Under the pieces are notes generated by a model. It had not been told where the DNA came from. It made no database searches and was given only the letters and a program-made list of their open reading frames with translations. Of a DNA stretch of 64,000 nucleotides, positions 9,828 through 61,720 are shown one piece after another. The DNA is from Aphrocallistes beatrix (taxonomy: Eukaryota > Porifera > Hexactinellida > Sceptrulophora > Aphrocallistidae). The translations under genes were made by a program, and so were the position numbers. Every line of letters starts with the position of its first letter. Position 1 is the first letter of the stretch. The stretch is from positions 1,426,001 to 1,490,000 of the forward strand of contig OY725502.1 in assembly GCA_963281255.1 (NCBI GenBank), read 5' to 3'.

Positions 9828-11265
9828 CAATAGAACGTCAGTTATCCGAACGTGATGGGACCAAATGGGTTTCGGATAACTGAAGTTCGAAAAACTGGAG
9901 TTCAGATAAGTAACGATCTACCAATCAATTATGTATAATCATAGCCTACTCTAATAATGCCTCACAGTAAAATAACCAAGGATGCGGTAATAGCCGAATG
10001 GATTAATACACGATTAGCCTAAAGTCGTCAACCATGTAGGATAGGCATTAAGAATGTATTACTAGCATATATAAACATGGCATCAAATAACATATATCCG
10101 TTGTCAAAATTTCGATTCGTTATCATATCATTCCGCAACAGGTCATTTTAAGCACGATTTTGGCAATTTTCTAAGCTGTTTTAACCCTATTTCTAAATGA
10201 TATTAAGGTGTGATTTTTGTGTAGAACCAAGATTAGTACGAGTTGATTTGAAAAGTTTAGAATTTTTCAATGGAATGTTGTTACATTCCTGCGTTGCTAT
10301 GGTAAAGCATTTTGGTCAGTTTGGGCCATATCCTGCAAACTGTAAGAACTAGGTCTTCAAATCTGATCGTATTTGATAGGCAATTAGCTACTTCCTATTA
10401 GGTAATAATACAATTTAAACTTCTAAATTCACAGACTATAGAGTTATGAGACAATTTAGTGTTTTAGCCACATTCTTAAATCAACCCATAACTCAAAACT
10501 CGTTGAATTTAGAAGTTCAAGTTGTATTATCACCTAATAGGAATTAGGCCATTGCCTATCAAACACGATCGAATTTGAAGATCTAGCTACTATAGTTTGC
10601 ACGAAATGGCCCAAACTGACCAAAATGCTTTACCATAGCAACGCAGGAATGTAACAACATTCCATTGAAAAATTAAAAAATTTTCAAATCAACTCGTACT
10701 AAGCTTGGTTCTGCACAAAAATCACACCTTAATACCATTTAGAAATAAGGTTAAAACAGCTTAGACAATCGCTAAAATTGTCCTTAGAATGACCTGTTGT
10801 GCAATGATATGATGACTAATCGAAATTTTTCCAACGGATATATGTACTTTGATGCCATGTTTATATATGCTGGTAATACATTCTTAATGGCTATTCTGCA
10901 TGGTTAACGATTTCAGGCTAATCGTGTATCAATCCATTCGGCTATTACTTCATCCCTAGTCCATGATTTTCAGTCTACTGTGAGGCATTATTAGAGTAGG
11001 CTATGGTATAATTTATGTTGAACTTGAAATAATTTATTTAATGTGGTTAGTAATACTTTTTAAAAGTGAAGAAGCGAATCAGGGATGTGGTGTGGTAAGT
11101 ATTTCTATGGAATACTTAATTTATTAGGGTCGATTAATAGCATATTTAGGTTAGAAATATGGTTTTTAATGCCTTCAATTGTCTTGGCTCAAGTAGGATA
11201 ATTTCAAAAATTTTACAAGTACTAGTTGGGTAAACCGAGGAGTTGGGATAACTGACGCTCTATTG
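9828..11265. mobile_element. pogo/Tc1-like element carrying a nested foldback
   Basis: The ends match as inverted repeats: CAATAGAACGTCAGTTATCC at 9828 and the complementary ggataactgacgctctattg ending at 11265. Both are flanked by TA (9826-9827 and 11266-11267). A second inner motif (ttcggataactgaag) repeats the end sequence. No transposase is present. Most of its length is the foldback at 9940-11005, so the original element was only about 370 bp. It lies directly upstream of the TPR gene. Confidence 0.75.
9940..11005. mobile_element. Galileo/P-like foldback, family A copy 1
   Basis: 1066 bp, almost entirely one inverted repeat. The ends are CATAGCCTACTCTAATAATG and its reverse complement. 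A perfect 7-bp target duplication GTATAAT flanks it (9933-9939 and 11006-11012). The arms stay complementary almost to the centre near 10470. No coding sequence is seen. Family A copy 2 is at 60671-61720. Confidence 0.85.
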
Positions 11266-11267
11266 TA

Positions 11268-11549
11268 TATCAATCGAAATTTTATTATATTAATATGTTT
11301 TAGTTTAAGTACACGGTCGTAATGGAAATTCAATTTTTTTACAAATTACGATTTATGTTGGCTAATTCTAATATTCCAGATAAATAATTGTTGGTTACAT
11401 ATATGAAGATTTGTTGTGCAATCACCACTAAAGGAGGGTATAATATCGTAGTTTGCCGTAGGGATGGGGATGTTGGATTTTAGGATTTCTGCGTTACGTA
11501 ACGTTTGAACGGTCGCACCCCCTTACGTATCGTGTGTGACGGCTCCAAG
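11268..11549. other. Intergenic, nothing recognised
   Basis: AT-rich sequence between the pogo-like element and the gypsy remnant. Confidence 0.4.
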
Positions 11550-12660
11550 CTTAATACACTGTATATCGATGGGTAACTGGATGTCTTCCGTAAGTCAGTT
11601 AATTTGGCGACAAATGCTGGATGTATTTGGCATGCAAATAAGAACTTGCTTCACTCAACAGTGACGGCCATGAACCCTTACTCAATTGGCGATCTAGCAT
11701 AAGTTACATAATCCCTTGTTCGATAAAGGCCACATTTCTCTCAGTCATACCATCATATGGGGATGGTATGGTGTGATGTGGCGTTTGTCAATCCCTAATG
11801 GACTATGAAATCTCCGGAATTCTCATCTATCAATTAGGATCCTTGATCGGTGACTAAACACCTCTGGGAGACCATGCCCCCGATAAACCCACCCTCGTTC
11901 GAATGCTGCTATCACACTCTCAGCCGACTGTTCATGAAGTGGCATCGATTCCAGAAGACACACAATCCCACTATTAATGAAAAATATTTGTATCCACCGT
12001 CTCCCCATGGGAATGTCCCAATATCGGCCCATATCGCGTCCCTGGGCAGTCCTTTCCGATTAATAAAGCTTCTATGTCTTTCGGTTTAGGATTTGAGTCC
12101 CTGGCATGATATATATAGCGGTAGCGCAATCAAAACCATGTCAGGTATATAACATCGATTGTTCTCAAAAAGCGTTGCAGTTCTTTAATGCAACCAAGTC
12201 TTGACAAAGCTTTCACTTCGCTCAAATACGATAACACTGGTCTTCTAATGGTGCAGGAAATGTGCTGAACAAGGAACTTGCACTCGGAATATGCAAGTTG
12301 GCGCTTTTCCTTCGTAACTGAATTTTAGTTCATCGGAGAAGTTTGAATAATTCCTGAAGGTGTCTCGGTCGTCCTTCCAATGAAAAATATAAGAATTTCA
12401 TTCAAGTAATTATCTGCATCGTCAATATCCTCCAATGATTTATCCATTAGGCCTTGGAGGGCGGCACATGAACTAACGATACAAAAAGGCACTACTAGCA
12501 TCTCGTATTACCCTCTCAGTGTATGAAATGAAGTATTCTGTGTATACATCTTCCTCCCTTATCGGGAAGCACCAATATACGTTCTCAGCATTCAGACGGG
12601 AAAAATAACAGCTTTCGGCAAGTTTATCGAGTATCGTTTATCGGTTAGGTAGACCATAAG
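11550..12660 (-). pseudogene. Ty3/gypsy retrotransposon pol remnant (RT and integrase)
   Basis: Read on the minus strand from about 12660, several frames together show the order of a Ty3/gypsy polyprotein. A reverse-transcriptase part has a substitute for the usual LVNAPATFQRLMDK segment (ALQGLMDKSLEDID) and the block before the YLDDIL-type active site (YLNEILIFF). A KELQRFL segment matching the RT thumb follows. Next is an integrase core piece at about 11823-12032 (ESVIAAFERGWVYRGHGLPEV), then HTIPSPYDGMTERNV, matching the YHPQSDGMVER motif. Stops and frameshifts are frequent and the active-site Asp pair is altered, so it is dead. No LTRs were identified. Confidence 0.7.
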
Positions 12661-14224
12661 CATCTCTTTTTGTGATGAATTCAATTGTTTTAGAGATTAA
12701 GTAGTAGTGGTGGTAGCTGTTACTTTAAAGTTTAATATAATAACTAGGAGCGCGTTCGCTTTCTCGCGCTACGTGGTTGCTTGACACTCCGTTTTTACAC
12801 TCGAATCTCGGCCTTTGGATTATTAACAATGTCATATTCGAAATCACCACTCCTGGGTACACCAGTAAACCTATTGAAACAATGTTTTTGACAATAATTT
12901 GAATTTTTTACTTATTTTTTTTGTGAACAACAGCAAATATTCAGCACAATTTATTTTAAAAATCATATTTGAATTCTAGATAACTGAATACATGTCCTAG
13001 TTAATCTTTGAAAGTTCATATCTAGCATTAATTTGAAAATTCTTGAAGAAAAGGTATAAAACATGTATATACTGTAAGGTATTAGAATAAGTTTCCACAA
13101 AATGTCTATGAAGTATTTTTAACTAATGTATTATATAGTAATATTTATTCCAACAATAAAATAAAGACAGTTCATCTACTTTTTGAAAGATGTGATCTCG
13201 AAATGTGTTGTAAGTTGTAACTGGCATGGTATTGAACATTTTCCAAATTGAAATTTTCCTTCTTTTATGTCACAGAAAAGGTGTATTAACTTCAAACACT
13301 TTCCAAACATGTTGTCGACAAATAAATACGACTAGTAACTTTCCTTGATGCCACATTTTAACTCAAATTCTGCATCTAGTGAACATCTTAACCAGCAGAG
13401 TATTTTAAAGGAACGCGCTCCTCACCTCTATAATTCGTATTGTAGCGAAGCTAAGTACAAATTATATAGGTAGCCACTCCTCTGACCAGAGGGTTGAAGA
13501 TTGAAACTTGAAGGTGCGTAGCACCTCGGAGATATGCACCTTGGTGTACAATTTTTTATTTTGTGTGCATGCATAAATTATTATGCAGGATTTTGTGACA
13601 CTTTTGTTTCGATTATATCTACAACTTCTTTTAACTTAGAATTCTCAAACTGATCTTTTGGAATGTTATTGGCTGTCAAAACTTATTTCATTTTCAGATC
13701 ATTAGAATAATCAACCATAGATTTAGAGCTGATTGAGTATTCTAATCAGTCATCATCTAATTAATTATTCACAAGTTGATGACTTAGTTTTTGATGACGT
13801 CATCAGACTCATCACACTGTCTCCCCGTTATCCTTATTTCGTTAGATCTTCAATGGGGGTTTCGGATTAGGGTGTACAGTACTCGTTAACCCGCGGTTGG
13901 CTAGGAATGTTGAAAGTGAAAATGAAAGTACATTGAAAGTGAAAATGAAAGTGGGGTTTTCTCTATTTATACTTTTGAGACGTAGCCAGGCGAGGGTTAA
14001 TAGCTTTACGATTCATAACAAATCAGTCATAAGAAAACAAATATATATAACAGTCTTATATAATATCCCATGTATACGTACCCACCGAGTTCTATTGTAT
14101 TATACAATAGATACTATACTTAATACGTTTTCATTCTAAGACGCATTAAGCAACTAGGGGAAAACGAAAGGACATAGGTTGTGCTACGCTGTCAATACCA
14201 ATAGGTTGTGCCAAGCTCTCCATG
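12661..14224. repeat. Repeat-rich intergenic DNA with a short inverted-end element
   Basis: Near 12746 the sequence taggagcgcgttcg is matched in reverse complement near 13410-13422 (gaacgcgctcct), suggesting a roughly 675-bp element with short inverted ends. A small hairpin (ggtgcgtagcacc) lies near 13514. A gtgaaaatgaaagt motif is duplicated at about 13915-13950. No gene is seen. Confidence 0.4.
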
Positions 14225-14232
14225 CCCTAAAG

Positions 14233-14610
14233 CAGTGGTTCCCAGCTCTACCGCCCCCCAGGGGGCGTTTGCTTGCCTCAGGGGGGCGCTGGAGAGGAAG
14301 GGGAGATTGTGGGGAACGTTGAGAAGGAGGCACCGGATGAGAATTTATTGTTACAAGTATATATGTAAATATAATTGTAACATTGTTGTGTTGCTCAATT
14401 ACAAGTTGTCCACAAGAAAATTTTTCATCAATCAGAATATAGCCAACATATTATGTCTCAGTTTTGGATCAACAGTTACAGATGGCTTCTTACCAAGGAA
14501 TTATAAAAAGGGATTATACTCTGACTTAATAAACAATGAAGTATGGGGGGCGTTCTGAAAGTTTCAAGCACTTTAGGGGGCGTTACAAAGAGAAAGGATG
14601 GGAAACACTG
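14233..14610. mobile_element. hAT-type MITE
   Basis: 378 bp. The ends are CAGTGGTTCCCA and TGGGAAACACTG. A perfect 8-bp target duplication CCCTAAAG lies at 14225-14232 and 14611-14618. Subterminal GGGGGCG motifs occur on both sides. An open frame across it is accidental. Confidence 0.9.
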
Positions 14611-14618
14611 CCCTAAAG

Positions 14619-15309
14619 GGAGCTGCACATAAAATCCTAGATTTAAAATTCTGACTAATTTTGTTGTCCTATTATATCATTTTTTGTATATTTTTATAGT
14701 AAACGATGATGTTCCAAGATCCAGTTATATTCAGTGAAATATAATCTGTCAGATAATTATTTGTGCGCTTTTAATTAAACTTCTTCCATTTTTTGATTTA
14801 TTGAAAGTAACTGAGTTATCTAAATGGATACTGCTGGCTAATTTACAATATATTGACCATTGAAGAACTCGAGGAGTTTAAAAGAAATAAAAAGTGATCG
14901 AAAGTGCACATATATTGCTCCAAATTCATCTTCGCGGGCCAAAAAAGTGAGCTTGCGGGCCGCATCCGGCCCGCGGAGCAGCAGTTTGAGACCGTTGAGC
15001 TAAATCACAAATGATGATATCATCTTGACTTTCGACAGATTATATTACTTTAGTTTACTAATATTTTGCCATTAGAATGCAACATAGTGATTGAATATTT
15101 CTATAAGAACTCAAAGACAATATATGTATGAGTTTCTACTCAGGGTTAAAGCAAACCAAATAATTAATGGGTATTTTAGTCATTTTCACTAATTTTTAGT
15201 TTATATAGGAGAGATATATGCTTTTTTGAGTTTGATATCCATTTTTCAAAAAATCTTCTGAAATATGTAAGCTGGAATAATTACTTATAGTCAGGTCAAT
15301 ATGATGTAT
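14619..15309. other. Intergenic with a hAT-like end fragment
   Basis: Near 14930-15000 there is a gcgggccgcatccggcccgc palindrome followed by agcagtttgagacc. It is like one end of the MITE at 22058-22355, but no partner end was found. Otherwise no feature. Confidence 0.4.
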
Positions 15310-15848
15310 GACCCCAAAATAATTGCAAGAAATTGTTTTATTGCATTTTTCCGTAGTATCATGTCTTAAGAGTGACATACTAAAAGTTTACCGAAATCGG
15401 ACTATCCGAAAGTGGATTGGTACGACTCCGTCGTTGACCCCGGACTATACAAATCGCCGGTTTTGAAAACGGATATTTAAACTTTCAAATGATTGCAGAT
15501 CATTTTAATTGTCATATTCGTACTCAGCATCAAATTTCCGACAATTTGATATATATATTGACTATATTTTGGGCAAATATTTTCTGGTCCTCCCTAGCAA
15601 CTGCCTGGAATGTGAAAATTCCGATCTCCAAATTTGGTAGAAACGAGTGACCCCTTGTTTTTCTCGGCTATGCTTGCTGAGTACGAATTTCTTAATATAA
15701 ATAGTCTAAGTGTTAGTTTTAAAATATTATTACTTACGGCTGGTGGCATAAGTGGATTTTTAATGGGAAAAACTCATAAATTTAACTCTTTTAACACCTA
15801 TGAAATTTTAAAATGGAAAATTAGATGGGATAGATTGTTAAATACATA

Positions 15849-16051
15849 CGACTCCGCTTAATAGGACCACATCTGTGAGAGGACATTTGGTCCGATTAAG
15901 CAGAGAATCCTATTCAAAATATATAGATATACGTGTCTATATTTTCCATTAGCTTCTATGTATGTGTGATAAATAATCCGGTCCTGACATAAGTGGTCTG
16001 ATTAAGCTGTCGGCCCGATTATCCTGTAGTCCTCTTAAGCAGAGTTGACTG
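15849..16051. mobile_element. pogo/Tigger-type MITE
   Basis: 203 bp. Related ends (cgactccgcttaatagga and cctcttaagcagagttgactg) are flanked by TA at 15847-15848 and 16052-16053. It matches the elements at 36604-36774 and 52977-53128. No coding capacity. Confidence 0.75.
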
Positions 16052-16079
16052 TAGATTGATAGATATGCTCGTATTTCAG

Positions 16080-16630
16080 TTTTATCTTCCGTTTCATCAT
16101 CCGATGCAATTCTTTCGCTCACATTGTCGCAGTTGTTTTCTTGGCATGTCCGCATGCTTGAGAGCTGTTTAGTCCTTGTTTCCTGCAGCTACATCTGAGA
16201 CTACTACAGCCAGTAGAACAGTTACAATAAATCATTTTCAGTAGTGCTTCGGATGCAGGGTTAGTGTCCATCATGACTGGGATTAGGCTGTTATCTTGAC
16301 AGTCCCATCCCCATTCGTGACCTCCATATCATCAGTCATGCCCTTCCACAACATCACCTGGAAGGAGCTCCTCAGAGAGTGAAATTTCGTGGCGGAGGCT
16401 GTAGGTAGCAGTCTTTCAGGTATCACGAAATTAACAACAGTACAAAGATATACTTCTACTCGGATAAAGGGAAACAAACCGTATTGTATGACATAAAGGT
16501 TATAAAGCAGGCGTTTGAGAACAACATCTATGACAGCCTGCCTTTTCAACATGCATTCGCTCGGTGTGAGAAGTCTGCTCTACACTGGTTGATGAAAGAG
16601 GATTCCGTCTTACAAAGCTGTGCTAGTGTT
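16080..16630 (-). pseudogene. CXC (tesmin/TSO1-like) domain transposon-associated remnant
   Basis: The minus strand from about 16630 reads LLPTASATKFHSLRSSFQV, then a short linker. In another frame it gives PASEALLKMIYCNCSTGC followed by SLRCSCRKQG, and in a third CQENNCDNVSE. That order is the C-terminal tail of a family of long uncharacterised proteins common in invertebrates, often in repeats, with a Cys-rich CXC module. At least two frame changes break it here. It lies between the arms of the inverted repeat at 15310-17157, so it may be that element's former gene. Confidence 0.55.
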
Positions 16631-17157
16631 TTCTGCAGCAATCCAAGACCCAGTTGAGATGGAAATCAAATTTTAAATTTTATTTGTTTGTTTTTCATTA
16701 ATAATACATTTATGCCACCAGCCGCAAGTAATAATATTTTAAAACTAACATTTAGACTATTTATATTAAGAAATTCGTACTCAGCAAGCATAGCCGAGAA
16801 AAACAAGGGGTCACTCGATATGGTTTCTACCAAATTTGGAGAGCGGAATTTTCACATTCCAGGCAGTTGCTAGGGAGGACCAGAAAATATTTGCCCAAAA
16901 TATAGTCAATATATATATCAAATTGTCGGAAATTTGATGCTGAGTACGAATATGACAATTAAAATGATCTGCAATCATTTGAAAGTTTAAATATCCGTTT
17001 TCAAAACCGGCGATTTGTATAGTCCGGGGTCAACGACGGAGTCGTACCAATCCACTTTCGGATAGTCCGATTTCGGTAAACTTTTAGTATGTCACTCTTA
17101 AGACATGATACTACGGAAAAATGCAATAAAACAATTTCTTGCAATTATTTTGGGGTT

Positions 17158-18469: not shown

Positions 18470-18475
18470 GGCAGG

Positions 18476-18823: not shown

Positions 18824-18829
18824 TTCAAG

Positions 18830-43702: not shown

Positions 43703-45004
43703 ATACATGCCAACCTGAGCCATGATAAGAGCGGGACTCAGCGTTGAATTTGGCGGGACCATGGCCTACTTAATATACGGCTATACATGTCACCGAGAAG
43801 GCCATAAAACGAAGAGGCCAGTTTTAACAAAGTCAAAATTTAATTAGACCGATAAATCAAAAACCGCTTCCGATAGACATTTGAAATGTATTATTACCAT
43901 ATACAAACATTATATCAGAGTATCCAATTCCGCTGTCAAATATTTGATATGTCATCATGTGATTGCGCAATAGGCTCTTTTTAGAGCGGAAAATGTTGCT
44001 GTTCTAGCTCATATTAAACATCGTTATCTGCATTTCTATTACTTGATTTTTTGATAGAGCAACAATAGGAAGACCTCAAGCCAAAAAATCTGAAAATTTT
44101 AGTTAGAATGTCTATGCATTCCTCAGTTGCTATGGAAACAAAAAATTACATGTTTAAGCCATAACTCGAAAAGTATAGATCATAGACACTAAGAAATTAT
44201 ATCATTTAATCCGTAAACTAATACTTCCTATATGAGAATAATACTATTCACATGTCTATTTCTGAGTTATCTAGGATTTTGTTATATCATTACTTCTCTA
44301 TAGATCGTGATAAAATCCTAGATAACTCAGAACTTATTGAAAATAGACATGTGAATAGTATTATTCTCATATAGGAAGTAATAGTTTACGGATTAAATGG
44401 TATAATTTCTTAGTGTCTATGATCTATACTTTTCGAGTTATGGCTTAAACATGTAATGTTTTGTTTCCATAGCAACTGAAGAATGCATAGACATTCTAAC
44501 TAAAATTTTCATATTTTTTGGCTTGAGGTCTTCCTATTGTTGCTCTATCAAAAAATCAAGCATTAGAAATGCAGATAACGATGTTTAATATGAGCTGGAA
44601 CAGCAACATTTTCCGCTCTAAAAAGAGCCTATTGCGCAATCACATGATGACATATCAAATATTTGACAGCGGAATTGGATACTCTGATATAATGTTTGTA
44701 TATGGTAATAATACATTTCAAATGTCTATCGGAAGCGGTTTTTGATTTATCGGTCTAATTAAATTTTGACTTTGTTAAAACTGGCCTCCTCGTTTTATGG
44801 CCTTCTCGGTGACATATATAGCCGTATATTAAGTAGGCCATGGCGGGACGCAATAGAAATGTAAAAAAAACTATACATAGAATTTAAAAAGCGGGACATA
44901 ATGGGGAAATTTCATGCAAAAGCGGGACACTCGTAAAAATTAGCTCAATAGAAGAGTGAAAAAAGCGGGACGTCCCGCAAAAAACGGGACAGTTGGCAAG
45001 TATG
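43703..45004. mobile_element. hAT-like MITE interrupted by a foldback
   Basis: Ends atacatgccaacctgag and agttggcaagtatg, with a GAATTTG duplication (43696-43702 and 45005-45011). The same family without an insertion lies at 51380-51573. Its body is a series of agcgggac repeats. It sits in the Tigger-like element and holds the foldback at 43760-44842. Confidence 0.75.
43760..44842. mobile_element. Galileo/P-like foldback, family B copy 1
   Basis: 1083 bp, one long palindrome. Both ends read CATGGCCTACTTAATATACG on opposite strands. A 7-bp duplication GCGGGAC flanks it (43753-43759 and 44843-44849). The centre is near 44290. No coding sequence. Confidence 0.85.
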
Positions 45005-45180: not shown

Positions 45181-45669
45181 ATAGCGACCGTCCGGTTGGT
45201 ACGGTTTTACCGGACCACTTTTCAAAAGTGGTCCGGTTGGTTCGGTGAAAACCTGACCACTAAAACCATGGCGCCGTCGCTGTATTGTAGTGTCGTACAA
45301 TGTATGAATACTTTTCTCAATAAATTTATGGCGATTATAATTTATTGAGAAAGGTATTCATACAAGCAGGCATATATAAATACATGTAGAAAAGTATTCG
45401 TACATCGCAATGTTTTCCATCCAAATTGTTATAATACTAGTCCATTTATGAAGTCAAAAACATTTAATCAGTAACATATACACTTAATCTGGCTTAAAGT
45501 TTGTTTTCTTTACAGTCAAATACTCACTTTATAAGCTTTCGACCTAATTACTCTCCATCAAGAATAATTATTTCTGCATTTGCTACCCTATGGCATTGGT
45601 GGTACGAAGTGGTACAGTTTGAAAATTTTCAACCTTATGGGAGAGTATGTTGAATATTATAAAGTGAGT
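45181..45669. other. Intergenic with small hairpins
   Basis: ggaccacttttcaaaagtggtcc is a perfect 23-bp palindrome at 45214-45236, shown here only to its inner part. A second hairpin pairs gtatgaatacttttctcaat (45302-) with its inverse near 45345. No gene. Confidence 0.45.
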
Positions 45670-46902
45670 CATAGCATTCTATACACTAAGGCTAAGCAAT
45701 GGCACTCCCTAATTTTTTTGGACCAGGGAATGGTTAGTATATTCAGACTTATTCACATCACTCGCAATATTTCTCCCCCTGTGTAAGATCATCGACAATT
45801 TATTACCGGCATATATAAACAATATATACAAGTGCTAAAATCAGCTATCAAAATTTCATTGGAATGTATACACATTCCTGCGTTGCCAGGGAAACGTAAT
45901 CTGGCTACTTGGGTTATATCTCAATAACAGTAAGTGCTAGACGCTAATAAATGATTTTATAGTATGATAGGTACATGTAATAGGCGACTTCCTATTCACT
46001 AATAAATAATTTATTCATCTAAATATTATAGTTTTATAGTTATGGGTCAATATATTTTGCCAATACAATGGCATATTGGCTCAGAACTGTATAACTATAA
46101 TATTTAAGCGAATAAATTTTAATAGTAGTGAATAGGAACTTAGGAAGTCACCTATTACCTACCTATAAAATCGTTTATTAGCGTCTAGGACTTACTGTTA
46201 TTGAGATATAGCCAAGTTAGTCAGATTACGTTTCCCTGGTAACGCAGGAATGCGTACATTCCAATTAAAACGTCCACATATTTTCAACAACTGGTCCAAA
46301 GTGAGATTTCCTATGCTAAATAAACTTTAATACTGTTATTAATACTGCGGAAAGCATGCAAGAAAATTGGTTAAATTTGTCGTAATCAGTGTTCCCTCTA
46401 AGGCCGGCCGATATTTTTTTTTACTTTGACCATGAAAACATGTTTCTTTCACAAATTTGGTTGAGAAAAATGTATCAAGGAAAAATGTTCGATTCCTTAA
46501 ACAAGAGCCCCTCCAGACATGCCATTGATCAAATGACGTACATTGGGGCTGAACCTAGTTACGCCCCTGCATTTGTCGGCCGATATAATTTGTTTTTGAA
46601 AACGGTGTGGCCGATGCCCTGCCGGCGCCAGCCGGTCGGCCCGAAATTTTTGGATCCTTAGAGGGAACCCTGGTCGTAATTATAGCATGTTGCGCAATAT
46701 AATGATGATTACATACTTTTTGATTACTGATTTAACACCTGTATACATTGTTTATATATGCTGGTAATAAATTGTCAATGATCTTACACAGGAGGAGAAA
46801 TACTGTGAGTGATGTGAATAAGTCTGAATATGCTTGTACTAACCAATCTCTGGAGGCAAAAAAATTAGGGAGTACCATTGCCTTAGTGTATAGAATGGTA
46901 TG
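45670..46902. mobile_element. Galileo/P-like foldback, family C, split by a hAT MITE
   Basis: Ends CATAGCATTCTATACACTAA and the inverse of CATACCATTCTATACACTAA. A 7-bp duplication AGTGAGT flanks it (45663-45669 and 46903-46909). Without the inserted MITE (46387-46672 plus its 8-bp duplication) it is about 940 bp. It shares with families A and B a core like acattcctgcgttgc and catatataaac near similar positions. Confidence 0.85.
46387..46672. mobile_element. hAT-type MITE inside foldback C
   Basis: 286 bp. Ends CAGTGTTCCCTCTAAGG and CCTTAGAGGGAACCCTG. A perfect 8-bp duplication GTCGTAAT (46379-46386, 46673-46680). An open frame across it is accidental. Confidence 0.9.
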
Positions 46903-46929
46903 AGTGAGTAATTCGAATGTGGATAATTA

Positions 46930-48132: not shown

Positions 48133-48421
48133 AAAACGCTAGGATTTTTTGTTTGTTTGTTTGTTTATCTGAATTGATTGGAGAATTGGCAAGTCGTAGA
48201 GATAGGAAAATTGGTATGTAGGTGTCAAATGATGAATCTACGATTAAGTTCGAAGATCTAAGCGAAATTTCACACCTCTGCAAAAAATGGAAAACAATGT
48301 TTCACACCTTTTCTATACAATACTATGTATGGCTTCACTCTCACAATAGAGTTCATTGTACGACACTATTTTAGGCTGTTATTGTTGCTAATACTTCAAA
48401 GCAATAACTTATATAGATGTC

Positions 48422-49509
48422 CATGGCCTACTTAATATGCTATATATGTCACCGAGAAGGCCATAAAACGAAGAGGCCAGTATTAACACAGTCAAAATTT
48501 AATTAGACCGATAAATCAAAAACCGCTTCCGATAAACATTTGAAATGTATTATTACCATATACAAACATTATATCAGAGTATCCAACTCCGCTGCAAAAA
48601 TTTGATATGTCATCATGTGATTCCGCAATAGGCTCTTTTTAGTGCGAAAAATGTTGATGTTCTAGCTCATATTGAACATCATTATCTGCATTTTTAATAC
48701 TTGATTTTTTTTGATAGAGCAACAATAGGAAGATCTCAATACAAAAAATCTGAAAATTTTAGTTGGAATGTCTATGCATTCCTCAGTTGCTATGGAAACA
48801 AAAAATTTCATGTTAAAGCCATAACTCGAAAAGTATAGATCGTAGACACTAAGAAATTATACCATTTAATCTGTCAACTATTACTTCCTATATACGAATG
48901 ATACTATTCACATGTCTATTTTCAATATTTTCTGAGTTATCTAGGATTTTGTCATATCTCATTACTTCTCTATATATCGTGATAAAATCCTAGATAACTC
49001 AGAACATATTGAAAGTAAACATGTAAATAGTATTATTCTTTATAGGAAGTAGTAGTTTGTGGATTAAGGTATAATTGCTTAGTGTCTACGATCTATACTT
49101 TTCGAGTTCTGGCTTAAACATGAAATTTTTTGTTTCCATAGCAACTGAGGAATGCATAGACATTCCAACTAAAATTTTCAGATTTTTTGTATTGAGATCT
49201 TCCTATTGTTGCTCTATCAAAAAATCAAGTATTAGAAATGCAGATAACATGTTTAATATGAGCTAGAACATCAACATTTTTCGCTCTAAAAAGAGCCTAT
49301 TGCGGAATCACATGATGACATATCAAATTTTTGCAGCGGAGTTGGATACTCTGATATAATGTTTGTATATGGTAATAATACATATCAAATGTCTATCGGA
49401 AGCAGTTTTTGATTTATTGGTCAAATTGAATTTTGACTGTGTTAAAACTGGCCTCTTCGTTTTATGACCTTCTCGGTGACATATATAGCCGTATATTAAG
49501 TAGGCCATG
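48422..49509. mobile_element. Galileo/P-like foldback, family B copy 2
   Basis: 1088 bp palindrome closely matching 43760-44842. Ends catggcctacttaatatgc and ...ttaagtaggccatg. A perfect 7-bp duplication AGATGTC flanks it (48415-48421, 49510-49516). Confidence 0.88.
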
Positions 49510-49554
49510 AGATGTCTAAATTATATTATAGTGTATAGCAATAAAAAAGGTTTT

Positions 49555-51040: not shown

Positions 51041-51089
51041 AGTAAAGGATTGTAAATAAATCCAGTTTGGTGAAAAGCGATACAATACC

Positions 51090-51573: not shown

Positions 51574-51609
51574 CTTGTGTTCCAATTCAACAGTTTCATT
51601 CAAAACTCA

Positions 51610-53128: not shown

Positions 53129-53235
53129 TATATATTATGAGCTGTAGTTACAATCACGTTCATTCAGCATCATTTCAACGATATAAAATACTTGGATGCA
53201 TATACACAAATAGTAAATGTAAATATCGCTACATA

Positions 53236-54630: not shown

Positions 54631-57123
54631 TTAAATAAGGAATCTCTTCAGGCCTACAAGTGATCTGGGCGAGTAGAGCAGATACTTGGCTAACTGGTCA
54701 GTCCATGCTGAGTAAGAGAGCTCGTTAAACGCTACAACATATTTAATTTCCAATAGAGTTTCAATCTTAAACAAGAAATGCTTCTGCCCTTTCAAATCAT
54801 TGAGACACTTCTCCCGCTCTTCTCTTGAGGTCTCTACTGAAACTTCCTTGAGTGGAGAAGTCTGATAGTTGTCATTGAAGTAACTCTTCTTGTCTCTGCC
54901 CCAACACAGCCTAGCCGTAGATATATCCAGCCACATGTACACCCGATGCACTCCTCCCTGCATTCCGAACTCGTACGCCCCCATGATGCACCCATAAGCT
55001 AGCACCTCTAGCTCCCGTATGGCCGTGTAGGCGCGGGAGGGAGGGGGAAGGGGGCGGGCAGAGGCAGAGGATCGGAGGAGGGACCTGGAGCTACTGCTGA
55101 CTGTGCCCTGCGTGAAGAGAGAGGCGCGGCTAGGGGCGTGAGACAGGAGACTGATAGAGTCGTCCTGTAAGAGAGAGCGACTGAGATCGAACACAGAGGT
55201 CTCGTGGCAGGTGAACAGAGCTACTGTGTAGTTGTGCCCCTTCATCAGAGCATAGTCCAGGGGAGTCTTATCGTTGTTGTCCGTCTGACTCGAATCAGCC
55301 CCCCTATCGATCAGGTACTTGCACGCCTCCACCTGATCGCACACCGCGGCCCAGTGCAGAGGGGTGCGTCCCTGTTTGTCCGTGTCAGCTACAGAGTCAC
55401 TCCGCACAGCCAGGACCGCCTTCAGCGAGGAGATGGAGCCCTTCTCCGCTGCTTGATGCAGGATCGTCTTCCCCAGGTGGTCCTTGAAGAAGGTGGCCTC
55501 CAGTCGCAGCAACCGCCTCAGACACTTGGAGCTTCCAGGATGTACCGCCCAATGGAGCGCCGTCTTTCCCTCGATGTCCTTCTCTTCCACCTCAGCTCCC
55601 AGCGAGAGCAGCAGTGAGACGCAGGAGATCTGGTCATGGAAGGCTGCCCACATGAGCGGCGTCATGTTAGCATCGTCTGTGGCATTCACCATCCTCGCGT
55701 ACCTGCCGGCTATGCACTGGATTGACTTGGGATTGGAGGGGTGTGTCGCCCAGTGTATGGGGAGTCTGCCTTCGCCGTCAGTGATCCTCGGATCTGAGCC
55801 TTTGGAGATCAGATACTCCACAAGATGATAGTGGCCCAAGTAGCAAGCCATGTGCAGCGCAGTGGCGCCATCAGTCACCTGCTGGTTAAGAAAGGAGCTG
55901 TCGTTGACCAGCGTCTGTACACAGTCCATGTGCACATGCTGTTCATTGAAAGCGAGCATGAGAGGAATCCGACCGTGTCTGTCTACTGCGTTCACATCGG
56001 CGCCTGTACTGATCAGCACATGTATCTGATGCAGTTGCCCCTGTCTGGCTGCCAGGTGTAGCGGTGTGAGTCCGTCCTCGATTATCTCCTTCTGGAGCAG
56101 CTCACCAGGTGTGAACACCTGCTCCTGAGATTGTAGCATTTCCACTCTGTAGTCAGGACAAGGAAGGGTGTACATCCTGTGAGGAAACTGGCTGGCGTAA
56201 GGGAGTGGTGGCCTATCGGGAAGAGAGATTCGTTTGAAAATCGCGTCTAAATCAAATTTCTTCTTAAAATTTGGAGGCTGGTGGAGCTGGAGAGGACGAA
56301 GTGTGAGTAGCCTAGTCTTCAGAATGGAAAGTTCGTCTGCTTTTGATTCTCCCTCTAAGTCTCGCTCAGTGGAGGAATGCGTTGTATTCTGATATACCTC
56401 ACAATCAGGTTTCTCCTCATCTGAGTCTACTGTGAGAATATCAGCCTCCTCTATATTATGCGTTACGTCTATCTCCTCTGTCTCATCGGCATTCTTGTTA
56501 GTAGCAGCAGAATCCTGATTGAGAACTGGGAGGCCAGTCTTCTCGGTTTCGAATGGTAGGACCTCCGTTTTCTTATATTTGGTTTTCTTTCGCTTGGGTT
56601 TGCGCTGCTCTCCATTCCACGCAACCTGAGGAACTGGTAAGGCTGTCCTCACAGCTCTATCTTCACTCATGACGTCATTACGCACTGAGCTATTACTATC
56701 CATGATAGCATTGAGCTTTGCTCCGTCTTCAATAGTTGTATCGGGCTCAGTACAGAGCACAGCGTCACTTTGTATTGTGTGGGTGCAATGCATAGGACTT
56801 AGGTTGCCAACATTTTCAATTACTTCAGACTCTAGCGTCAATTCCTCAATATCCGAGTCTTGAAATTCCTGTAGAATCTCAATCGTGGAGGCGTTGATCT
56901 GCGCGAAGAGATCCACTCTCTCGAAGTCTCCCTCCCAGGCCGTCTTGCAGGCTGTGCGTGTGAGTCCGGAAGGACCTGCATCCGGGCCGTGGGAAGGGGG
57001 AAGTACCGGCTGTATTCTGTTTTGCTTCTTTGGGTTGAGCACGACGATATTCCTCAGTCGCCGTTTCTTTGCGAAACTCTGATCAAGAAAAGGAAGTGGG
57101 ATCACTCTCCCAGGCTCCGTCAT
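54631..57123 (-). CDS. Ankyrin-repeat protein with C-terminal PH-like domain
   Basis: 830 aa, intronless. The first 340 residues are acidic and disordered, with a basic patch near residue 180 (KPKRKKTKYKK) that may be a nuclear signal. Residues about 345-640 hold roughly eight ankyrin repeats: DGLTPLHLAARQGQ, DGATALHMACYLGHYHLV, ANMTPLMWAAFHDQISC, EGKTALHWAVHPGS, GKTILHQAAEKGS, GRTPLHWAAVCDQVEACKYL. They resemble the inversin/ANKRD55 type. A Ser-rich linker follows, then about residues 700-820 fit a PH domain: start YGCIMGAYEF, an internal VYMWLDISTARLCW, KHFLFKIET, and the helix LSYSAWTDQLAKYLL with the near-invariant Trp. ANK followed by PH is known in ORP1-type proteins, but no OSBP domain is present and I recognise no direct orthologue. 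A membrane- or centrosome-linked scaffold is possible. Confidence 0.8.
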   Translation of the reverse strand: MTEPGRVIPLPFLDQSFAKKRRLRNIVVLNPKKQNRIQPVLPPSHGPDAGPSGLTRTACKTAWEGDFERVDLFAQINASTIEILQEFQDSDIEELTLESEVIENVGNLSPMHCTHTIQSDAVLCTEPDTTIEDGAKLNAIMDSNSSVRNDVMSEDRAVRTALPVPQVAWNGEQRKPKRKKTKYKKTEVLPFETEKTGLPVLNQDSAATNKNADETEEIDVTHNIEEADILTVDSDEEKPDCEVYQNTTHSSTERDLEGESKADELSILKTRLLTLRPLQLHQPPNFKKKFDLDAIFKRISLPDRPPLPYASQFPHRMYTLPCPDYRVEMLQSQEQVFTPGELLQKEIIEDGLTPLHLAARQGQLHQIHVLISTGADVNAVDRHGRIPLMLAFNEQHVHMDCVQTLVNDSSFLNQQVTDGATALHMACYLGHYHLVEYLISKGSDPRITDGEGRLPIHWATHPSNPKSIQCIAGRYARMVNATDDANMTPLMWAAFHDQISCVSLLLSLGAEVEEKDIEGKTALHWAVHPGSSKCLRRLLRLEATFFKDHLGKTILHQAAEKGSISSLKAVLAVRSDSVADTDKQGRTPLHWAAVCDQVEACKYLIDRGADSSQTDNNDKTPLDYALMKGHNYTVALFTCHETSVFDLSRSLLQDDSISLLSHAPSRASLFTQGTVSSSSRSLLRSSASARPLPPPSRAYTAIRELEVLAYGCIMGAYEFGMQGGVHRVYMWLDISTARLCWGRDKKSYFNDNYQTSPLKEVSVETSREEREKCLNDLKGQKHFLFKIETLLEIKYVVAFNELSYSAWTDQLAKYLLYSPRSLVGLKRFLI

Positions 57124-57714
57124 CCCTCCTTTGAGAACAAAACACCATTCAGGTATGAATCATTAACAATTTTAGCTAGAAACCACATAGCTACTCTGAT
57201 ACGCAATATCAGAGTAGTGGGTTGAGATTACTCACCATTTTCCAGTCGAGCAATTAGAATTAGATATATCCACACTCCCTATTATTTACTGGCTAAAATG
57301 AACACTATAAAGGGGTCCTAAATACCAAATTCGATCTGCAGTATCGTGCAGACGGACAGTAGTGTAGTAGATCCATCCATGCCATGTCACCACCATATGG
57401 AATAACCCATTAAAAATCAATTCCCTATTGAGGGAGAAATAGTTCATTAAAATTTAGCCTATATTCTCTACCTGGCCCCTAGCAATACATATTCGCTAAT
57501 CCTAGATACGACACTCAATGGTAGATCCCTGGTAGCCTCCATAACTTACCTGAGTCGTGGGAGGTATTCATAGTATTGATTTGATCATTTTATTAGAAAA
57601 AAAAATAGATTGTTCTAGAAATAACAACCTATGTGTGCATTCGAAATGATCACAATCTATAATGTTCTCAGTGCCATTCTACTAGAGGGGACAGGTGGCA
57701 ACGCCTGTCATGCC
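57124..57714. other. Intergenic between two minus-strand genes
   Basis: 5' flank of the ankyrin gene and 3' flank of the RRM gene. A remnant of the dispersed block (cagtatcgtgcagacggaca) lies near 57341-57360. Confidence 0.4.
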
Positions 57715-58719
57715 TCAATAGTAGCCGCCGCTTGAATTCGATGCACGACTCTGGCTGTTGTTGCTGCTTCCGTTCTTCCCACGAGAGAAGCCACCCCCTC
57801 CATTGGTGGTCTGTCCCATGTCCCCTTGGATCGGGTAGTAGCCCTGGTACCCGGAGTGCTGTTGGCTTCCAGTGCTGGGATAAGCGCTCTGCGCGAAGTA
57901 ACTGTTGAAATTTCTCTGACTCCCGTCCTGATTCAGTCCGTAGTACTCTCCAGTTGAATAGTTATACCCGTAGCTAGAGGAGTAGGGAAAGTACTGTCCG
58001 TACGGGAACGTCTGGCTCCCGTAGCAGTATGCGTACGCGTAGTAGTAGGCGGGGTCCGTGTACGAGGAGTAGCCGGGGGGGTAGGTGCTCATCAAGTTGG
58101 GAGAAGTGAGGTCTTGTCCACTGGGCGGGTCCTGCGCTAGCTTACACTCCACCTGCTTCCCGTTGATGCGGAAGAAATGGTCTTTGCAGATCTTCTCCAC
58201 GCTCTTGTCATCATCCAGTGTCAGGAATCCGAACCCGCGGGGCCGGTTCGACTCCTTGTCCAGTTTTATCTCTACCTTCACCACATTCCCGTACGACACG
58301 AAGTGCTTCTTCAGCTCGTCCTCAGTCGTCCCCGGGGGGATGCCACCGACGAATATCTTACGAGTTTGGACGGTAGGCTGGGGGAAGAGGTTGGGAGGTG
58401 ACTGGCTTTGGTTGAGACTGGAAGGGGTCCCTCGCTTTTCAGCAATCTTCGGGTCCACGTGCTTACCATCAATTTTGTGTTCCTTTTTCCCTAACACTGA
58501 ACCGACAGAGCAGGCCTTCTTGAAAGTGACAAATCCGAACCCACGAGGCTTTCCACTCCCATCCTTCATTATGACAGAATCGGTAATCTCTCCGTAAGTC
58601 TTGAAATAGTCCGTGAAGGTTTCCAGCGTCGTCTCCCAGCTAAGCCCCCCAACAAACATCTTCGTATTTTCCGGTTGCGACATGTCGGTGGCTAGAGAAG
58701 CATTTTTCAATTCACTCAT
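57715..58719 (-). CDS. Two-RRM RNA-binding protein, Musashi/DAZAP1/hnRNP-D type
   Basis: 334 aa from ATG 58719 (MSELKNASLATD), intronless; an upstream in-frame GTG is not a start. RRM1 (about residues 20-95): RNP2 MFVGGLSW and RNP1 RGFGFVTF. RRM2 (about 118-192): IFVGGIPPG and RGFGFLTL, with PRGFGF repeats typical of the Musashi/DAZAP1/HNRNPAB group. The sequence KMFVGGLSWETTLETFTDYF favours that group over ELAV or TIA. The tail (about 205-334) is prion-like: Tyr/Ser/Gly/Gln-rich (YYYAYAYCYG, YGYNYSTGEYYG) with a GGGGFSRG box, suggesting condensate formation and RGG-type RNA contact. The role is likely translational or splicing control of mRNAs. Musashi or DAZAP1 orthology cannot be settled by eye. 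Confidence 0.88.
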   Translation of the reverse strand: MSELKNASLATDMSQPENTKMFVGGLSWETTLETFTDYFKTYGEITDSVIMKDGSGKPRGFGFVTFKKACSVGSVLGKKEHKIDGKHVDPKIAEKRGTPSSLNQSQSPPNLFPQPTVQTRKIFVGGIPPGTTEDELKKHFVSYGNVVKVEIKLDKESNRPRGFGFLTLDDDKSVEKICKDHFFRINGKQVECKLAQDPPSGQDLTSPNLMSTYPPGYSSYTDPAYYYAYAYCYGSQTFPYGQYFPYSSSYGYNYSTGEYYGLNQDGSQRNFNSYFAQSAYPSTGSQQHSGYQGYYPIQGDMGQTTNGGGGFSRGKNGSSNNSQSRASNSSGGYY

Positions 58720-59158
58720 AACGAACACTTATACAAACAATATATCACTACACTTATTCGATAAATTTATAAAATTTATATATTCACACTTTGAGAATTA
58801 AAACTTGTTGTGGCAATGTTCTCAGTGAGCCTTAGTCACTGAAATCAAGGTTATAGAAATGAGGTCGAGTTATAAGAATTGAGTTCGGTCTATACCTACT
58901 AGGCAAGCATAGAGAAAAGTTTCCCACAGGTTACACTTTCATTTCGACTTGACACAGAGATGAGTTCAAAATAGCATGTCCTATTGATTATTAGGGTCAA
59001 AATGAGATGCGAACATGCATAAATTTCATTATAATAACTTTAGGAAGATGGATGGAATTACATAAGCATTCTAACTTGGAGAAGGGGGAGATTGAGTACT
59101 TGGAAATAGTACTATGCATTATGTAACAAAAATGTTCAGTATGGATGTCTCTACAATA
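58720..59158. other. Upstream flank of the RRM gene
   Basis: Several TATA-like stretches (aatttataaaatttatatat near 58764-58783). No gene. Confidence 0.4.
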
Positions 59159-59589
59159 CAGTCCACTTCCGAAAACCGGGACACTTGTTCGGAAACTGGA
59201 GCGCGTTTGGATGATAATTTTCTAAAATTATTTTTCTAGTTTAAAATATTTCATTTGTGTATGCTTAATGTGTGAAGAGTTGTTACACAGCATTTATGGG
59301 TTTGGGTGCCACGATGAATTGAGTCAAAGTACAAATTTTTACTGTAATCAATGTAATACCTATGAGACAGACTGACACTATACAAGGGCGGAACAATTCG
59401 GCGGGTATGCGAGAGTCGTACCATTTTTGTAGATTACATAATGATTGAGGATGCTAGTTCACCCCGACCTAAGATTATTCTCTTAAAACGCTTTGTTTTT
59501 GTCACGAGCTATTCTAACCTTATACAGTACCCACTCGATAACCGGGACGCCCAGCTCTGGTTCCGAGGTGCCCGGGTTTTCGTGCACTG
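59159..59589. mobile_element. pogo-like MITE
   Basis: Ends cagtccacttccgaaaaccg and cccgggttttcgtgcactg are inverted. TA precedes the left end (59157-59158); the right flank is ca. Internal acagtacccactcgataacc is a second end-like motif. Confidence 0.65.
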
Positions 59590-59610
59590 CATTATGTTAA
59601 CATCATCTTG

Positions 59611-59655
59611 ATGACTCAGCAAAACAATAACAACAACAACCAGATGAACATGATG
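59611..59655 (+). CDS. Possible first exon, Asn/Gln-rich, uncertain
   Basis: ATG opens MTQQNNNNNNQMNMM, followed directly by a consensus donor (gtatgt). No downstream exon is recognised. A TATAAATA at 59739-59746 (+) may be a separate promoter. It could be chance. Confidence 0.2.
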
Positions 59656-60486
59656 GTATGTTATCTATAATTTCAGCTGGAAACTTAACTTAAGTAATAA
59701 CTAAGTAATAACTAAGGTAAGTAATATCTATCGCCATGTATAAATAGACCAAACACAAACAAAACATCGCTCGGGACGACAGCCCCATTGCCTCCCTCTC
59801 GGTACGTCCCTGATAACATGAGTAACTGTCCATATCCACCTACGCACTATGCGGTCCGATTCCAGTACTAAATTTTTTTGAGACAACAAAAGCTGTCTGA
59901 AGGATTTGGGGTTGCAGTTCTCTTCTCTCACGATACTTAGATGATTCACATTTTGTGAATGGTATATCACTTGCAGAAGGATCGTTTCTTGTCACATCAA
60001 AAATTTTCTGAGATTGCTTTGGGAACATTAGGAAATTGATTTGCACTATTTTAAGCTCATTAACGCGTCTGCGTTATACTCCGTATTACTATTGTTATGT
60101 TGACCAAATGGATTTAGTTTGTATCTGGGTTTGTTTTGCACTTGCTCTTAATTTCAAAGATTTAAAAAAGACGCAACGGAGATAGATATAGTTTCGTCTT
60201 TTTCTAATATTTGTAATTTTCATTTGATATATTTAGTGGTTAAAATGTTCCCTCTTACTGCGTTTATATTCTTGCACAGTGAATCCATGTGTCTTAGATT
60301 GCTTTGTGAAATTTCGGTAGAACACTGATTTCACAACATACCCAATCGCAGGACTGGAATCCTGGAATGCGTAGTCAGAACCAGATTTAAGGTATTTTTT
60401 CTAAAATGCTCGCTTGGTCCAATAACGTGAAGTGGAATTTTAACCATCCGTATATATTTAAGTTTAATGAAATTTTAGTTCGAGAG
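59656..60486. other. Intergenic, no gene recognised
   Basis: No conserved coding signal on either strand apart from the TATAAATA at 59739. Confidence 0.4.
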
Positions 60487-60513
60487 GCTAGGCTAGGCTA
60501 GGCTAGGCTAGCT
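60487..60513. repeat. GGCTA microsatellite
   Basis: About five tandem copies of aggct/ggcta. Confidence 0.9.
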
Positions 60514-60670
60514 AAATCTATGAATCACTGTATACAAAAGGTAACTAGGTACCTGACTATGGCAGTTCACCATAGGCGCCAAGTGTGGGTATTGTTAACT
60601 AAGGAACTGTAATTATTTTAATTACCCATACTATGTTGGATTATATCCAGCGTTAGGAAATAGGCTAGAT

Positions 60671-61720
60671 CATAGCCTACTCTAATAATGCCTCACAGTA
60701 AAATAACCAAGGATGCGGTAATAGCCGAATGGATTAATACACGAAAAGCCTAAAATCGTTAACCATGTAGGGTAGACTTTAAGAATGTATTGCCAGCATA
60801 TATAAACATGGCATCAAAGTACATATATCCGTTGGAAAAATTTCGATTAGTCATCATATCATTGCGCAACAGGTCATTATAAGCACTATTTTGGCAATTT
60901 TCCAAGCTGTTTTAAGGCTACTTCTAAATGTTATTAAGGTAGATTTTTTTTGTAGAACTAAGATTAGCACGAGTTGATTTGAAAAATTTAGAATTTTTCA
61001 ATGGAATGTTGCTACATTCCTACGTTGCTATGGTAAAGCATTTTGGTCAGTTTGGCTCATTTCGTGCAAACTGTAGTAACTAGGTCTTCAAATTTGATCG
61101 TGTTTGATAGGCAATGGACTACTTCCTACTAGGTAATAATACAATTTAAACTTCTAAATTCACAGACTATAGAGTTATGCGACGATTTAGTGTTTTGGTC
61201 ACATTCTTAAAATCAACCCATAACTCAAAACTCGTTGAATTTAGAAGTTCAAGTTGTATTATCACCTAATAGGAAGTAGTCCATTGCCTATCAAACACGA
61301 TCAAATTTGAAGACCTAGTTACTACAGTTTGCACGAAATGGCCCAAACTGACCAAAATGCTGGAATGTAACAACATTCTATTGAAAAATTCTAAATTTTT
61401 CAAATCAACTTGTACTAATCTTGGTTCAACACAAAAATCATACCTTAATACCATTTAGAAATAGGGTTAAAACAGCTTAGAAAATCGCTAAATTGTCTTT
61501 AGAATGACCTGTTGCGCAATGATATGATGACTAATCGAAATTTTTCCAACGGATATATGTACTTTGATACCATGTTTATATATGCTGGTAATACATTCTT
61601 AATGCCTATTCTGCATGATTAACGATTTTGGGCTAATCGTGTATTAATCCATTCGGCTACTACTTCATCCCTAGTCCATGATTTTCAGTCTACTGTGAGG
61701 CATTATTAGAGTAGGCTATG
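60671..61720. mobile_element. Galileo/P-like foldback, family A copy 2
   Basis: 1050 bp palindrome matching 9940-11005 with the same CATAGCCTACTCTAATAATG ends. No target duplication: the left flank is ggctagat and the right flank acatatt, suggesting rearrangement on one side after insertion. Confidence 0.82.

What the first reader, a model, noticed from the sequence alone, without database searches (positions are those of the whole stretch)
9940..61720. Five about 1-kb fully palindromic elements with CATRG ends and 7-bp target duplications: Galileo/P-like foldbacks
Seen directly: A1 9940-11005, B1 43760-44842, C 45670-46902, B2 48422-49509 and A2 60671-61720 are each close to complete inverted repeats. 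All start CATAG or CATGG. Four have 7-bp duplications: GTATAAT, GCGGGAC, AGTGAGT, AGATGTC. The three sequence families differ but share a core (gaatgt...acattcctgcgttgc) and a catatataaac box at similar positions. Known: Drosophila Galileo is a foldback P-superfamily transposon with long inverted repeats and 7-bp duplications, and the P element begins CATG. Inference: this is a related, perhaps undescribed, group in an early animal, moved by a P-type transposase elsewhere in the genome. Transcripts through a copy would make about 500-bp dsRNA, a possible source of small RNAs.
Basis: partly seen in the sequence, partly recalled or inferred. Interest (0 to 1): 0.82.

Follow-up and report, generated by a model that had tools for sequence, protein, structure and literature searches.

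The report
P-element foldbacks in a glass sponge
Five hairpin-shaped DNA segments in this window are jumping genes of the fruit-fly P-element kind, living in what is probably a glass sponge, whose genome also holds their moving enzyme and dozens of small scars that look like places such elements have left.

Summary
The five elements are real and lie where stated. A1, B1, B2 and A2 are near-complete inverted repeats; C is only partly palindromic and carries a nested 286-bp insert. Four of five have exact 7-bp duplications.

The stated refutation test was run and passed. The genome has 131 P-transposase-core matches (150 of 177 candidates scored). Six P-transposase elements were followed to both ends: all have CATRG ends and five have exact 7-bp duplications; one has an unbroken 990-codon THAP plus P-transposase frame. 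Each foldback family shares its tips with a different transposase lineage. Over 40 tabulated elements, 27 have an exact 7-bp duplication and 34 at most one mismatch.

New: 44 fused double ends (24-48 bp, median 34), all that two pattern searches found. 38 of 44 have the 7-bp duplication with at most one mismatch. They look like P excision scars left by a roughly 17-nt staggered cut.

The host mitochondrion fits a glass sponge. These are P-superfamily foldback MITEs. They work like Galileo, but Galileo-clade membership was not testable. Transposition, the cut and small RNAs were not assayed.

The parts
9940..11005 (.). A1: family A foldback, 1066 bp; arms 9975-10458 / 10477-10960 (88%)
9933..9939 (.). 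7-bp target duplication GTATAAT left of A1; right copy at 11006-11012
9974..9988 (+). A1 box AACCAAGGATGCGGT, related to the GACCAGGGATGCGG box about 45 bp from the tips of A-tipped coding elements; proposed THAP binding site (inferred)
43760..44842 (.). B1: family B foldback, 1083 bp; arms 43759-44261 / 44341-44843 (98%) as the repeat finder extends them
43753..43759 (.). 7-bp duplication GCGGGAC left of B1; right copy at 44843-44849
45670..46902 (.). C: family C element, 1233 bp (939 bp without the nested insert and its extra 8-bp duplication); outer arms 184 bp at 85%, inner palindrome 185-600 at 78%
45663..45669 (.). 7-bp duplication AGTGAGT left of C; right copy at 46903-46909
45721..45735 (+). 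C box GACCAGGGAATGGTT, proposed THAP binding site (inferred)
46387..46672 (.). 286-bp element with CAGTGTTCCC... ends and 8-bp duplication GTCGTAAT, nested in C; hAT-like by recall
48422..49509 (.). B2: family B foldback, 1088 bp; arms in pieces 48439-48679/49249-49489, 48707-48863/49068-49224, 48896-48954/48980-49038
48415..48421 (.). 7-bp duplication AGATGTC left of B2; right copy at 49510-49516
60671..61720 (.). A2: family A foldback, 1050 bp, no target duplication

Best explanation
The five elements are non-autonomous foldback MITEs of the P superfamily. They are moved in trans by THAP-domain P transposases encoded by roughly 3.5-kb elements elsewhere in the same genome (probably a glass sponge). 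Shown from sequence: matching tips, 7-bp duplications on foldbacks and coding elements alike, THAP and P-transposase domains with acidic motifs aligned to those of the solved P transposase, and dozens of fused double ends. Inferred: the transposase recognises the CATRG tip plus a box about 45 bp in, cuts with a roughly 17-nt stagger, inserts into a palindromic target with 7-bp spacing, and the empty site is often closed by end joining that leaves about 16-18 nt of each end. Three families pair with three transposase lineages.
For: PF21787: 131 matches in the own genome, 150 of 177 candidates scored. Of six coding elements followed to both ends, five have an exact 7-bp duplication: CCCGAAG, AGGTATC, AATTAGC, GTATAAC, GTTGATT. 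L025 frame: THAP 6.9e-14, P RNase H domain 1.4e-13; 6p5a E 6e-5 with DE, D and DxxE motifs aligned. Tips over the first 45 bp: B1 vs E29 43/45 (score 41.0, best of 300 shuffles 14.5); C vs E31 36/39 (27.0 vs 13.0); A1 vs E9 36/41 (25.5 vs 12.5) and vs C1:3358201 37/44 (26.0 vs 12.5). Duplications: 27 exact and 34 with at most 1 mismatch of 40 rows; one of the six misses is exact when paired rightly (L092). Double-end scars: 27 exact and 38 with at most 1 mismatch of 44; cross-pair control 11 of 1190 for the 35. The same scar anatomy is tabulated for Drosophila P in PMC2895639 Table 1 (section 7); the 17-nt stagger is in PMC7776569 (passages).
Against: A2 and E_L029, the only B-tipped coding element found, lack a target duplication. 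Beyond the outer 33-82 bp the arms match no coding element examined, apart from foldbacks nested in or around those loci, so the arms' origin is unknown. 21 of 30 transposase loci showed no tip of their own in the 1.5 kb held on each side. Six of 44 double ends lack the 7-bp duplication. No expression or activity data. No GTP-binding-domain family was reported. The search for double ends of 53-82 bp, a control for the length peak, did not complete.
Confidence: 0.93

Rival explanations
1. Foldbacks of another superfamily (Mutator-like, hAT-like or the Drosophila FB type) that resemble P elements by chance.
For: Long inverted repeats occur in several superfamilies (PMC3688188, highlight seen among the passages).
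Against: 7-bp duplications (the usual lengths in Mutator and hAT elements, longer, are recalled); tips shared with P-transposase copies; double ends of P-scar type.
Confidence: 0.02
2. The families are members of the Galileo clade itself (vertical or horizontal kin of Drosophila Galileo).
For: 7-bp duplications and a palindromic target motif, as in Galileo (PMC4168063 passages); long inverted repeats.
Against: Coding elements have TIRs of 68 bp (E_L025) and 193 bp (E_L009) and no long repetitive TIR was seen. The target motif centre differs (GTTNAAC here, GTANTAC in Galileo).
Confidence: 0.1
3. The 24-48-bp double ends are not excision scars but very small elements that transpose as such, or deletion products of palindrome instability during replication.
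For: Foldbacks of 177 and 213 bp with exact 7-bp duplications also exist, so sizes grade downwards, and the 53-82-bp range was not counted. Long palindromes are deletion-prone (recalled).
Against: Many end near 16-18 nt from each tip with short overlaps or fillers, as in Drosophila P excision joints. Their flanks differ between places except for one set of three.
Confidence: 0.12
4. Assembly artefact: inverted read chimeras produce false palindromes.
For: A 200-N gap lies inside one nested foldback; foldback read artefacts exist (PMC12870357, search listing only).
Against: Arms differ by 1-18% within copies, and in family A same-side arms of different copies are more alike on average than the two arms of one copy; exact 7-bp duplications flank most copies.
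Confidence: 0.01

Closest known systems
Galileo (P superfamily foldback, Drosophila)
   Same: 7-bp target duplication, palindromic target motif, long inverted repeats, THAP-P transposase, many copies without a gene (PMC4168063 and PMC3688188, passages)
   Different: Here the coding elements measured have TIRs of 68 and 193 bp and the full palindromes are non-coding; other host phylum (inferred); target centre GTTNAAC instead of GTANTAC
P-MITEs of Anopheles gambiae
   Same: Non-autonomous P derivatives sharing only the outer ends with coding P lineages in the same genome, families tied to particular lineages (PMC1562414, passages)
   Different: Anopheles P-MITEs have 8-bp duplications and no word beginning 'palindrom' occurs in that paper's main text; here 7 bp and near-complete palindromes
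Drosophila melanogaster P element
   Same: THAP plus RNase H-like transposase; CAT... tip; THAP site at bp 41-51 and 53-63 (as stated in PMC3688188) against a box at about 45-59 here; excision joints of the same anatomy (PMC2895639 section 7)
   Different: 8-bp duplications, 31-bp TIR, unequal spacing of transposase sites at the two ends (PMC7776569 passages)
Zebrafish Pdre2 / THAP9
   Same: CATA... tips, P-type transposase outside insects (PMC10983969 passages)
   Different: 8-bp duplications, 13-bp TIR, distant 12-bp subterminal repeats

Membership tests
P superfamily | Transposase with THAP DNA-binding domain and P-type RNase H-like core | tested here: met
   L025 frame PF05485 6.9e-14, PF21787 1.4e-13; L009 frame 2e-13 and 1.9e-16; L029 frame core only; 131 core matches in the genome
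P superfamily | Catalytic D, D, E | tested here: met
   phmmer alignment to 6p5a: FDEMKV/MDEIHV, SDLGTGN/TDNYPLN, DIVEHFFG/DPLEHHFG; which residues are catalytic is recalled
P superfamily | GTP-binding domain inserted in the RNase H fold | tested here: inconclusive
   No such family reported at 1e-3; the 6p5a alignment spans residues 168-553 of that chain; structure prediction never ran
P superfamily | 7-8-bp target duplication | tested here: met
   27 exact and 34 with at most 1 mismatch of 40 rows
P superfamily | About 17-nt staggered cleavage | tested here: inconclusive
   Indirect: 44 double ends with median 34 bp, commonest lengths 32 (9) and 34 (7); the cut was not assayed and the longer-range control did not complete
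Galileo | 7-bp duplication and palindromic target | tested here: met
   62 target sites: T at -3 in 48, A at -2 in 40, T at +2 in 37, A at +3 in 45
Galileo | Long, internally repetitive TIRs on coding copies | tested here: not met
   TIRs of 68 and 193 bp in E_L025 and E_L009; the full TIR length of E31 and C1:3358201 was not measured
Galileo | Transposase groups with Galileo in a tree | not testable with these tools
P-MITE | Only outer ends shared with a coding P lineage, internal sequence unrelated | tested here: met
   Matches between foldbacks and the coding elements' own tips stop after 33-82 bp

The most novel reading that the evidence does not exclude
The sponge genome keeps a readable fossil record of P transposase chemistry: about 42 independent excision scars (44 minus two copies of one duplicated place) whose lengths, junction overlaps and fillers resemble Drosophila P excision joints. 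The roughly 17-nt staggered cut, and repair of its ends by a theta-like end-joining pathway, would then be ancestral to P elements across animals, while the duplication length (7 or 8 bp) varied between lineages. Three transposase lineages would each have their own palindromic dependants, defined by tip plus an inner box.
Probability: 0.7. Interest if true: 0.68.

Novelty: new variant of a known kind. Interest (0 to 1): 0.58.

Why it matters
P elements are best known from insects and vertebrates (recalled). A compact, probably glass-sponge genome with 131 P-transposase-core matches, palindromic dependants and dozens of likely natural excision scars lets the unusual long-stagger cut be tested for deep conservation from sequence alone. 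It also gives a system in which tip and transposase lineage appear to have diverged together. Over three thousand P-type ends in a 100-Mb genome make ectopic exchange between them plausible; a glass-sponge genome was reported as considerably rearranged (PMC10232365, passages), though no link was tested here.

Tried and rejected
Inverted flanks at C12:3754538 (L101/L102) and around the element nested in E31 first looked like foldback-driven inverted duplication. Reading wider showed a 3.3-kb palindrome with 99.7% arms that holds C pieces in both arms (L154), and a separate 2.3-kb foldback with other ends inserted in the transposase gene; idea dropped. L011 first looked like the coding partner of B because a B arm abuts its gene. 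It is a different P element (8-bp duplication GCATTTCT) inside a B foldback. My first terminus pattern missed the exact family A terminus by a misreading (put right). Arm homogenisation: B arms are more alike within a copy (0.971) than between copies (0.949, 0.950), A arms less (0.891 against 0.932 and 0.916); with 6 and 13 copies this stays undecided. An A-tipped transposase element with the exact 25-mer was looked for by eye among the listed places only (the lists are capped); none was seen.

Rows and pairings: L103/L104 was left out because only one C end was recognised, and loci with a single end were left out. Two rows of the 40 are wrong pairings of mine and count as misses: L101/L102 and L092, whose true element 52-1026 has the exact duplication GTGTATA. 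The 40 rows are a convenience set: all five window elements, and loci that the tools happened to cut.
Full report
1. What is in the window. Five elements lie at 9940-11005 (A1), 43760-44842 (B1), 45670-46902 (C), 48422-49509 (B2) and 60671-61720 (A2). A1, A2, B1 and B2 align to their own reverse complement over nearly their whole length at 86, 84, 95 and 92%. Four of five have exact 7-bp duplications; A2 has none. C is a weaker case: it has 184-bp outer arms, a separate inner palindrome and a nested 286-bp element with an 8-bp duplication GTCGTAAT. In the window, CATRGCCTACT with up to one mismatch occurs 9 times against 1.39 expected in shuffles; the 8 exact matches are the ends of A1, B1, B2 and A2. 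The five elements cover 8.6% of the window.

2. How common they are. The genome holding the window has 100.5 Mb in 28 contigs. CATRGCCTACT occurs 1689 + 1669 times against 16 + 15 for the reversed pattern. The exact 25-bp family A terminus occurs 325 + 314 times, control 0. The B head gave 40 matches, 40 of 412 candidates being scored, and the C head 41 places, 40 of 187 scored. Foldbacks of 177, 213, 456, 485 and 867-1304 bp are among the 40 rows.

3. The transposase. The P-transposase RNase H family PF21787 has 131 matches at E <= 0.001, 150 of 177 candidates being scored. Of the 30 loci cut around the best matches (1.5 kb each side), 6 show A-type tips (L009, L014, L017, L020, L024, L025), 1 a B-type tip (L029) and 2 C-type tips (L031, L036). 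The other 21 show no tip of their own; among them L011 has a B tip that belongs to the foldback it sits in, and L026 and L035 have weak C-pattern matches that I set aside. Six coding elements were followed to both ends. E_L025: 3591 bp, duplication CCCGAAG, TIR 68 bp. E_L024: 3577 bp, AGGTATC. E_L009: 3642 bp, AATTAGC, TIR 193 bp. E31: 6229 bp including a nested foldback, its two outer 40-bp tips identical, GTATAAC. C1:3358201-3361837: 3637 bp, GTTGATT, only its tips read, with a core match inside. E_L029: 3546 bp, B-type tips, no duplication. The L025 locus has one open frame of 990 codons, stop to stop, with THAP (6.9e-14) and P core (1.4e-13) domains. It matches the solved P transposase 6p5a at E 6e-5 with the acidic motifs aligned (which residues are catalytic is recalled). 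L024's frame is near-identical but broken, pointing to recent activity.

4. Pairing of families with transposases. Over the first 45 bp, B1 matches E29 at 43/45, C matches E31 at 36/39, and A1 matches E9 at 36/41 and C1:3358201 at 37/44, with scores of 25.5-41. A1 with E25, also A-tipped, scores 17.5, and the eight cross-family pairings tried score 4.5-12.5, about the best that shuffles reach. The protein lineages differ in step: against L025, the frames of A-tipped loci are 58-76% identical, L031 and L036 (C-tipped) 42 and 41%, L029 (B-tipped) 27%. A box GACCAGGGATGCGG (up to three substitutions) begins 44-45 bp in from the tip in all six A-tipped loci; three loci without a recognised A tip (L012, L019, L035) have it too. 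Relatives are seen in A, C and E31 but not in B or E29 (by eye). The Drosophila P and Galileo THAP sites lie at bp 41-63 and about 70 (PMC3688188, passages), so this box is the proposed THAP site; that is inference.

5. Duplications and target. Of 40 tabulated rows (5 window, 24 other foldback, 5 C-family, 6 coding), 27 have an exact 7-bp duplication and 34 at most one mismatch. Two of the six misses were my wrong pairings: L101/L102 and L092, whose correctly paired element has exact GTGTATA. From 62 sites (foldbacks, coding elements and double ends together) the target reads T A n [G T T n A A C] n T A: T at -3 in 48, A at -2 in 40, G at first in 28, C at seventh in 32, T at +2 in 37, A at +3 in 45 of 62. 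Galileo's reported motif is GTANTAC inside a 15-bp palindrome (PMC4168063, passages).

6. Excision scars. CATAGCCTACT joined to its own inverse within 30 bp occurs at 34 places, control 0; the CATGG form at 10, control 0. All 44 were read with flanks: 27 have an exact 7-bp duplication and 38 at most one mismatch. The six others differ at 3-6 of 7 bases; one of them has an 8-bp duplication instead (L133). For the 35 read first the control of mismatched pairs was 11 of 1190. L123-L125 share their flanks and are three copies of one place, leaving 42 independent (26 exact, 36 with at most one mismatch, by subtraction). Lengths are 24-48, median 34, commonest 32 (9) and 34 (7). Against six known tips, about 16-19 nt of an end often remain, with overlaps or short fillers, but many ends match for only 11-14 nt, perhaps because their parent family is not among the six. 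Drosophila P transposase cuts 17 nt inside the end on one strand (PMC7776569, passages), and its end-joined sites have the same anatomy: duplication, up to 17 nt of one end, overlap or filler, up to 17 nt of the other end, duplication (PMC2895639, section 7 with Table 1). In that table one of the two largest classes (14 isolates each) keeps only about 8 nt in all; such joints my pattern cannot see. The pattern only admits scars keeping 11 nt of each end and up to 52 bp in all, and the search for 53-82 bp did not complete, so the upper side of the peak is not controlled beyond 52 bp.

7. Host. Contig C28 carries a mitochondrial cox1. It reads TGA as a sense codon (11 in the matched stretch; 14 in the frame), uses no TGG, and favours ATA (42 of 70 Ile codons); the stretch is 70.8% A+T with AT skew +0.13 and GC skew -0.27. 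Compared by eye with the best PDB chain (8ugh), its 16 AGA codons fall at Ser in 6 (33, 100, 261, 321, 453, 482), Ala in 4, Gly in 3, Asn in 2, Lys in 1 and Arg in none, while 7 of 9 CGN codons fall at Arg. Glass sponges read AGR as Ser, avoid UGG, favour AUA and have such skews (PMC2267718, passages); that paper notes AGR as Ser also in some bilaterians. Compact genomes are reported for the group: 80 and 61 Mb (PMC10282587, passages); another was estimated at 141 Mb (PMC10232365, passages). The species was not identified.

8. What it is. Best reading: P-superfamily foldback MITEs moved in trans by co-resident THAP-P transposases. Known relatives are Galileo in Drosophila and P-MITEs in Anopheles (PMC1562414, passages: 8-bp duplications, MITE families tied to P lineages). 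I saw no paper describing P foldbacks or P excision scars in sponges in the listings. The Oopsacas paper reports 15.44% DNA transposons and its main text does not contain 'P element'; nor does the Aphrocallistes paper's. The library lacks most subscription journals, and Repbase was not searched.

9. Limits. No expression, cutting or transposition data; no transposase tree with named P lineages; no structure model; origin of the arms beyond the outer tips unknown; small-RNA idea untested.

Noticed in passing
window 46387-46672: 286-bp element with CAGTGTTCCC.../...GGGAACCCTG ends and 8-bp duplication GTCGTAAT nested in C; hAT-like by recall.
   Followed up: partly
window 61721-61854: Perfect 134-bp palindrome (67-bp arms, 100%) directly abutting the right end of A2, which itself lacks a duplication.
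   Followed up: partly
L086 + L011 (G000:C4, about 3074680-3080458): A different P-type transposase element (ends CATATACTCC / CATAGACTCC) inserted in a B foldback with an 8-bp duplication GCATTTCT; 7- and 8-bp P lineages may share one genome.
   Followed up: partly
L154 29-3356 (G000:C12): 3.3-kb palindrome with 996-bp arms at 99.7% identity carrying C-family pieces in both arms.
   Followed up: partly
L031/L090 (G000:C1, about 4495560-4497890): 2.3-kb foldback with non-CATRG ends inserted in a P transposase gene, with a 200-N gap and a CATAG foldback at its centre.
   Followed up: partly
L105 (G000:C28): Mitochondrial cox1 with AGA at conserved Ser positions and no TGG: glass-sponge traits.
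   Followed up: yes
window, arms of A, B and C (cattgcgcaacagg in A2, gattgcgcaatagg in B1, gttgcgcaatat in C): A TTGCGCAA-type palindrome near an ATGATGAC/TCATCAT box recurs in all three families roughly 190-215 bp from an end (read by eye; ATGATGAC positions); role unknown.
   Followed up: no
L123, L124, L125 (G000:C9): One double-end scar present in three copies in both orientations, so it lies in a duplicated sequence.
   Followed up: partly
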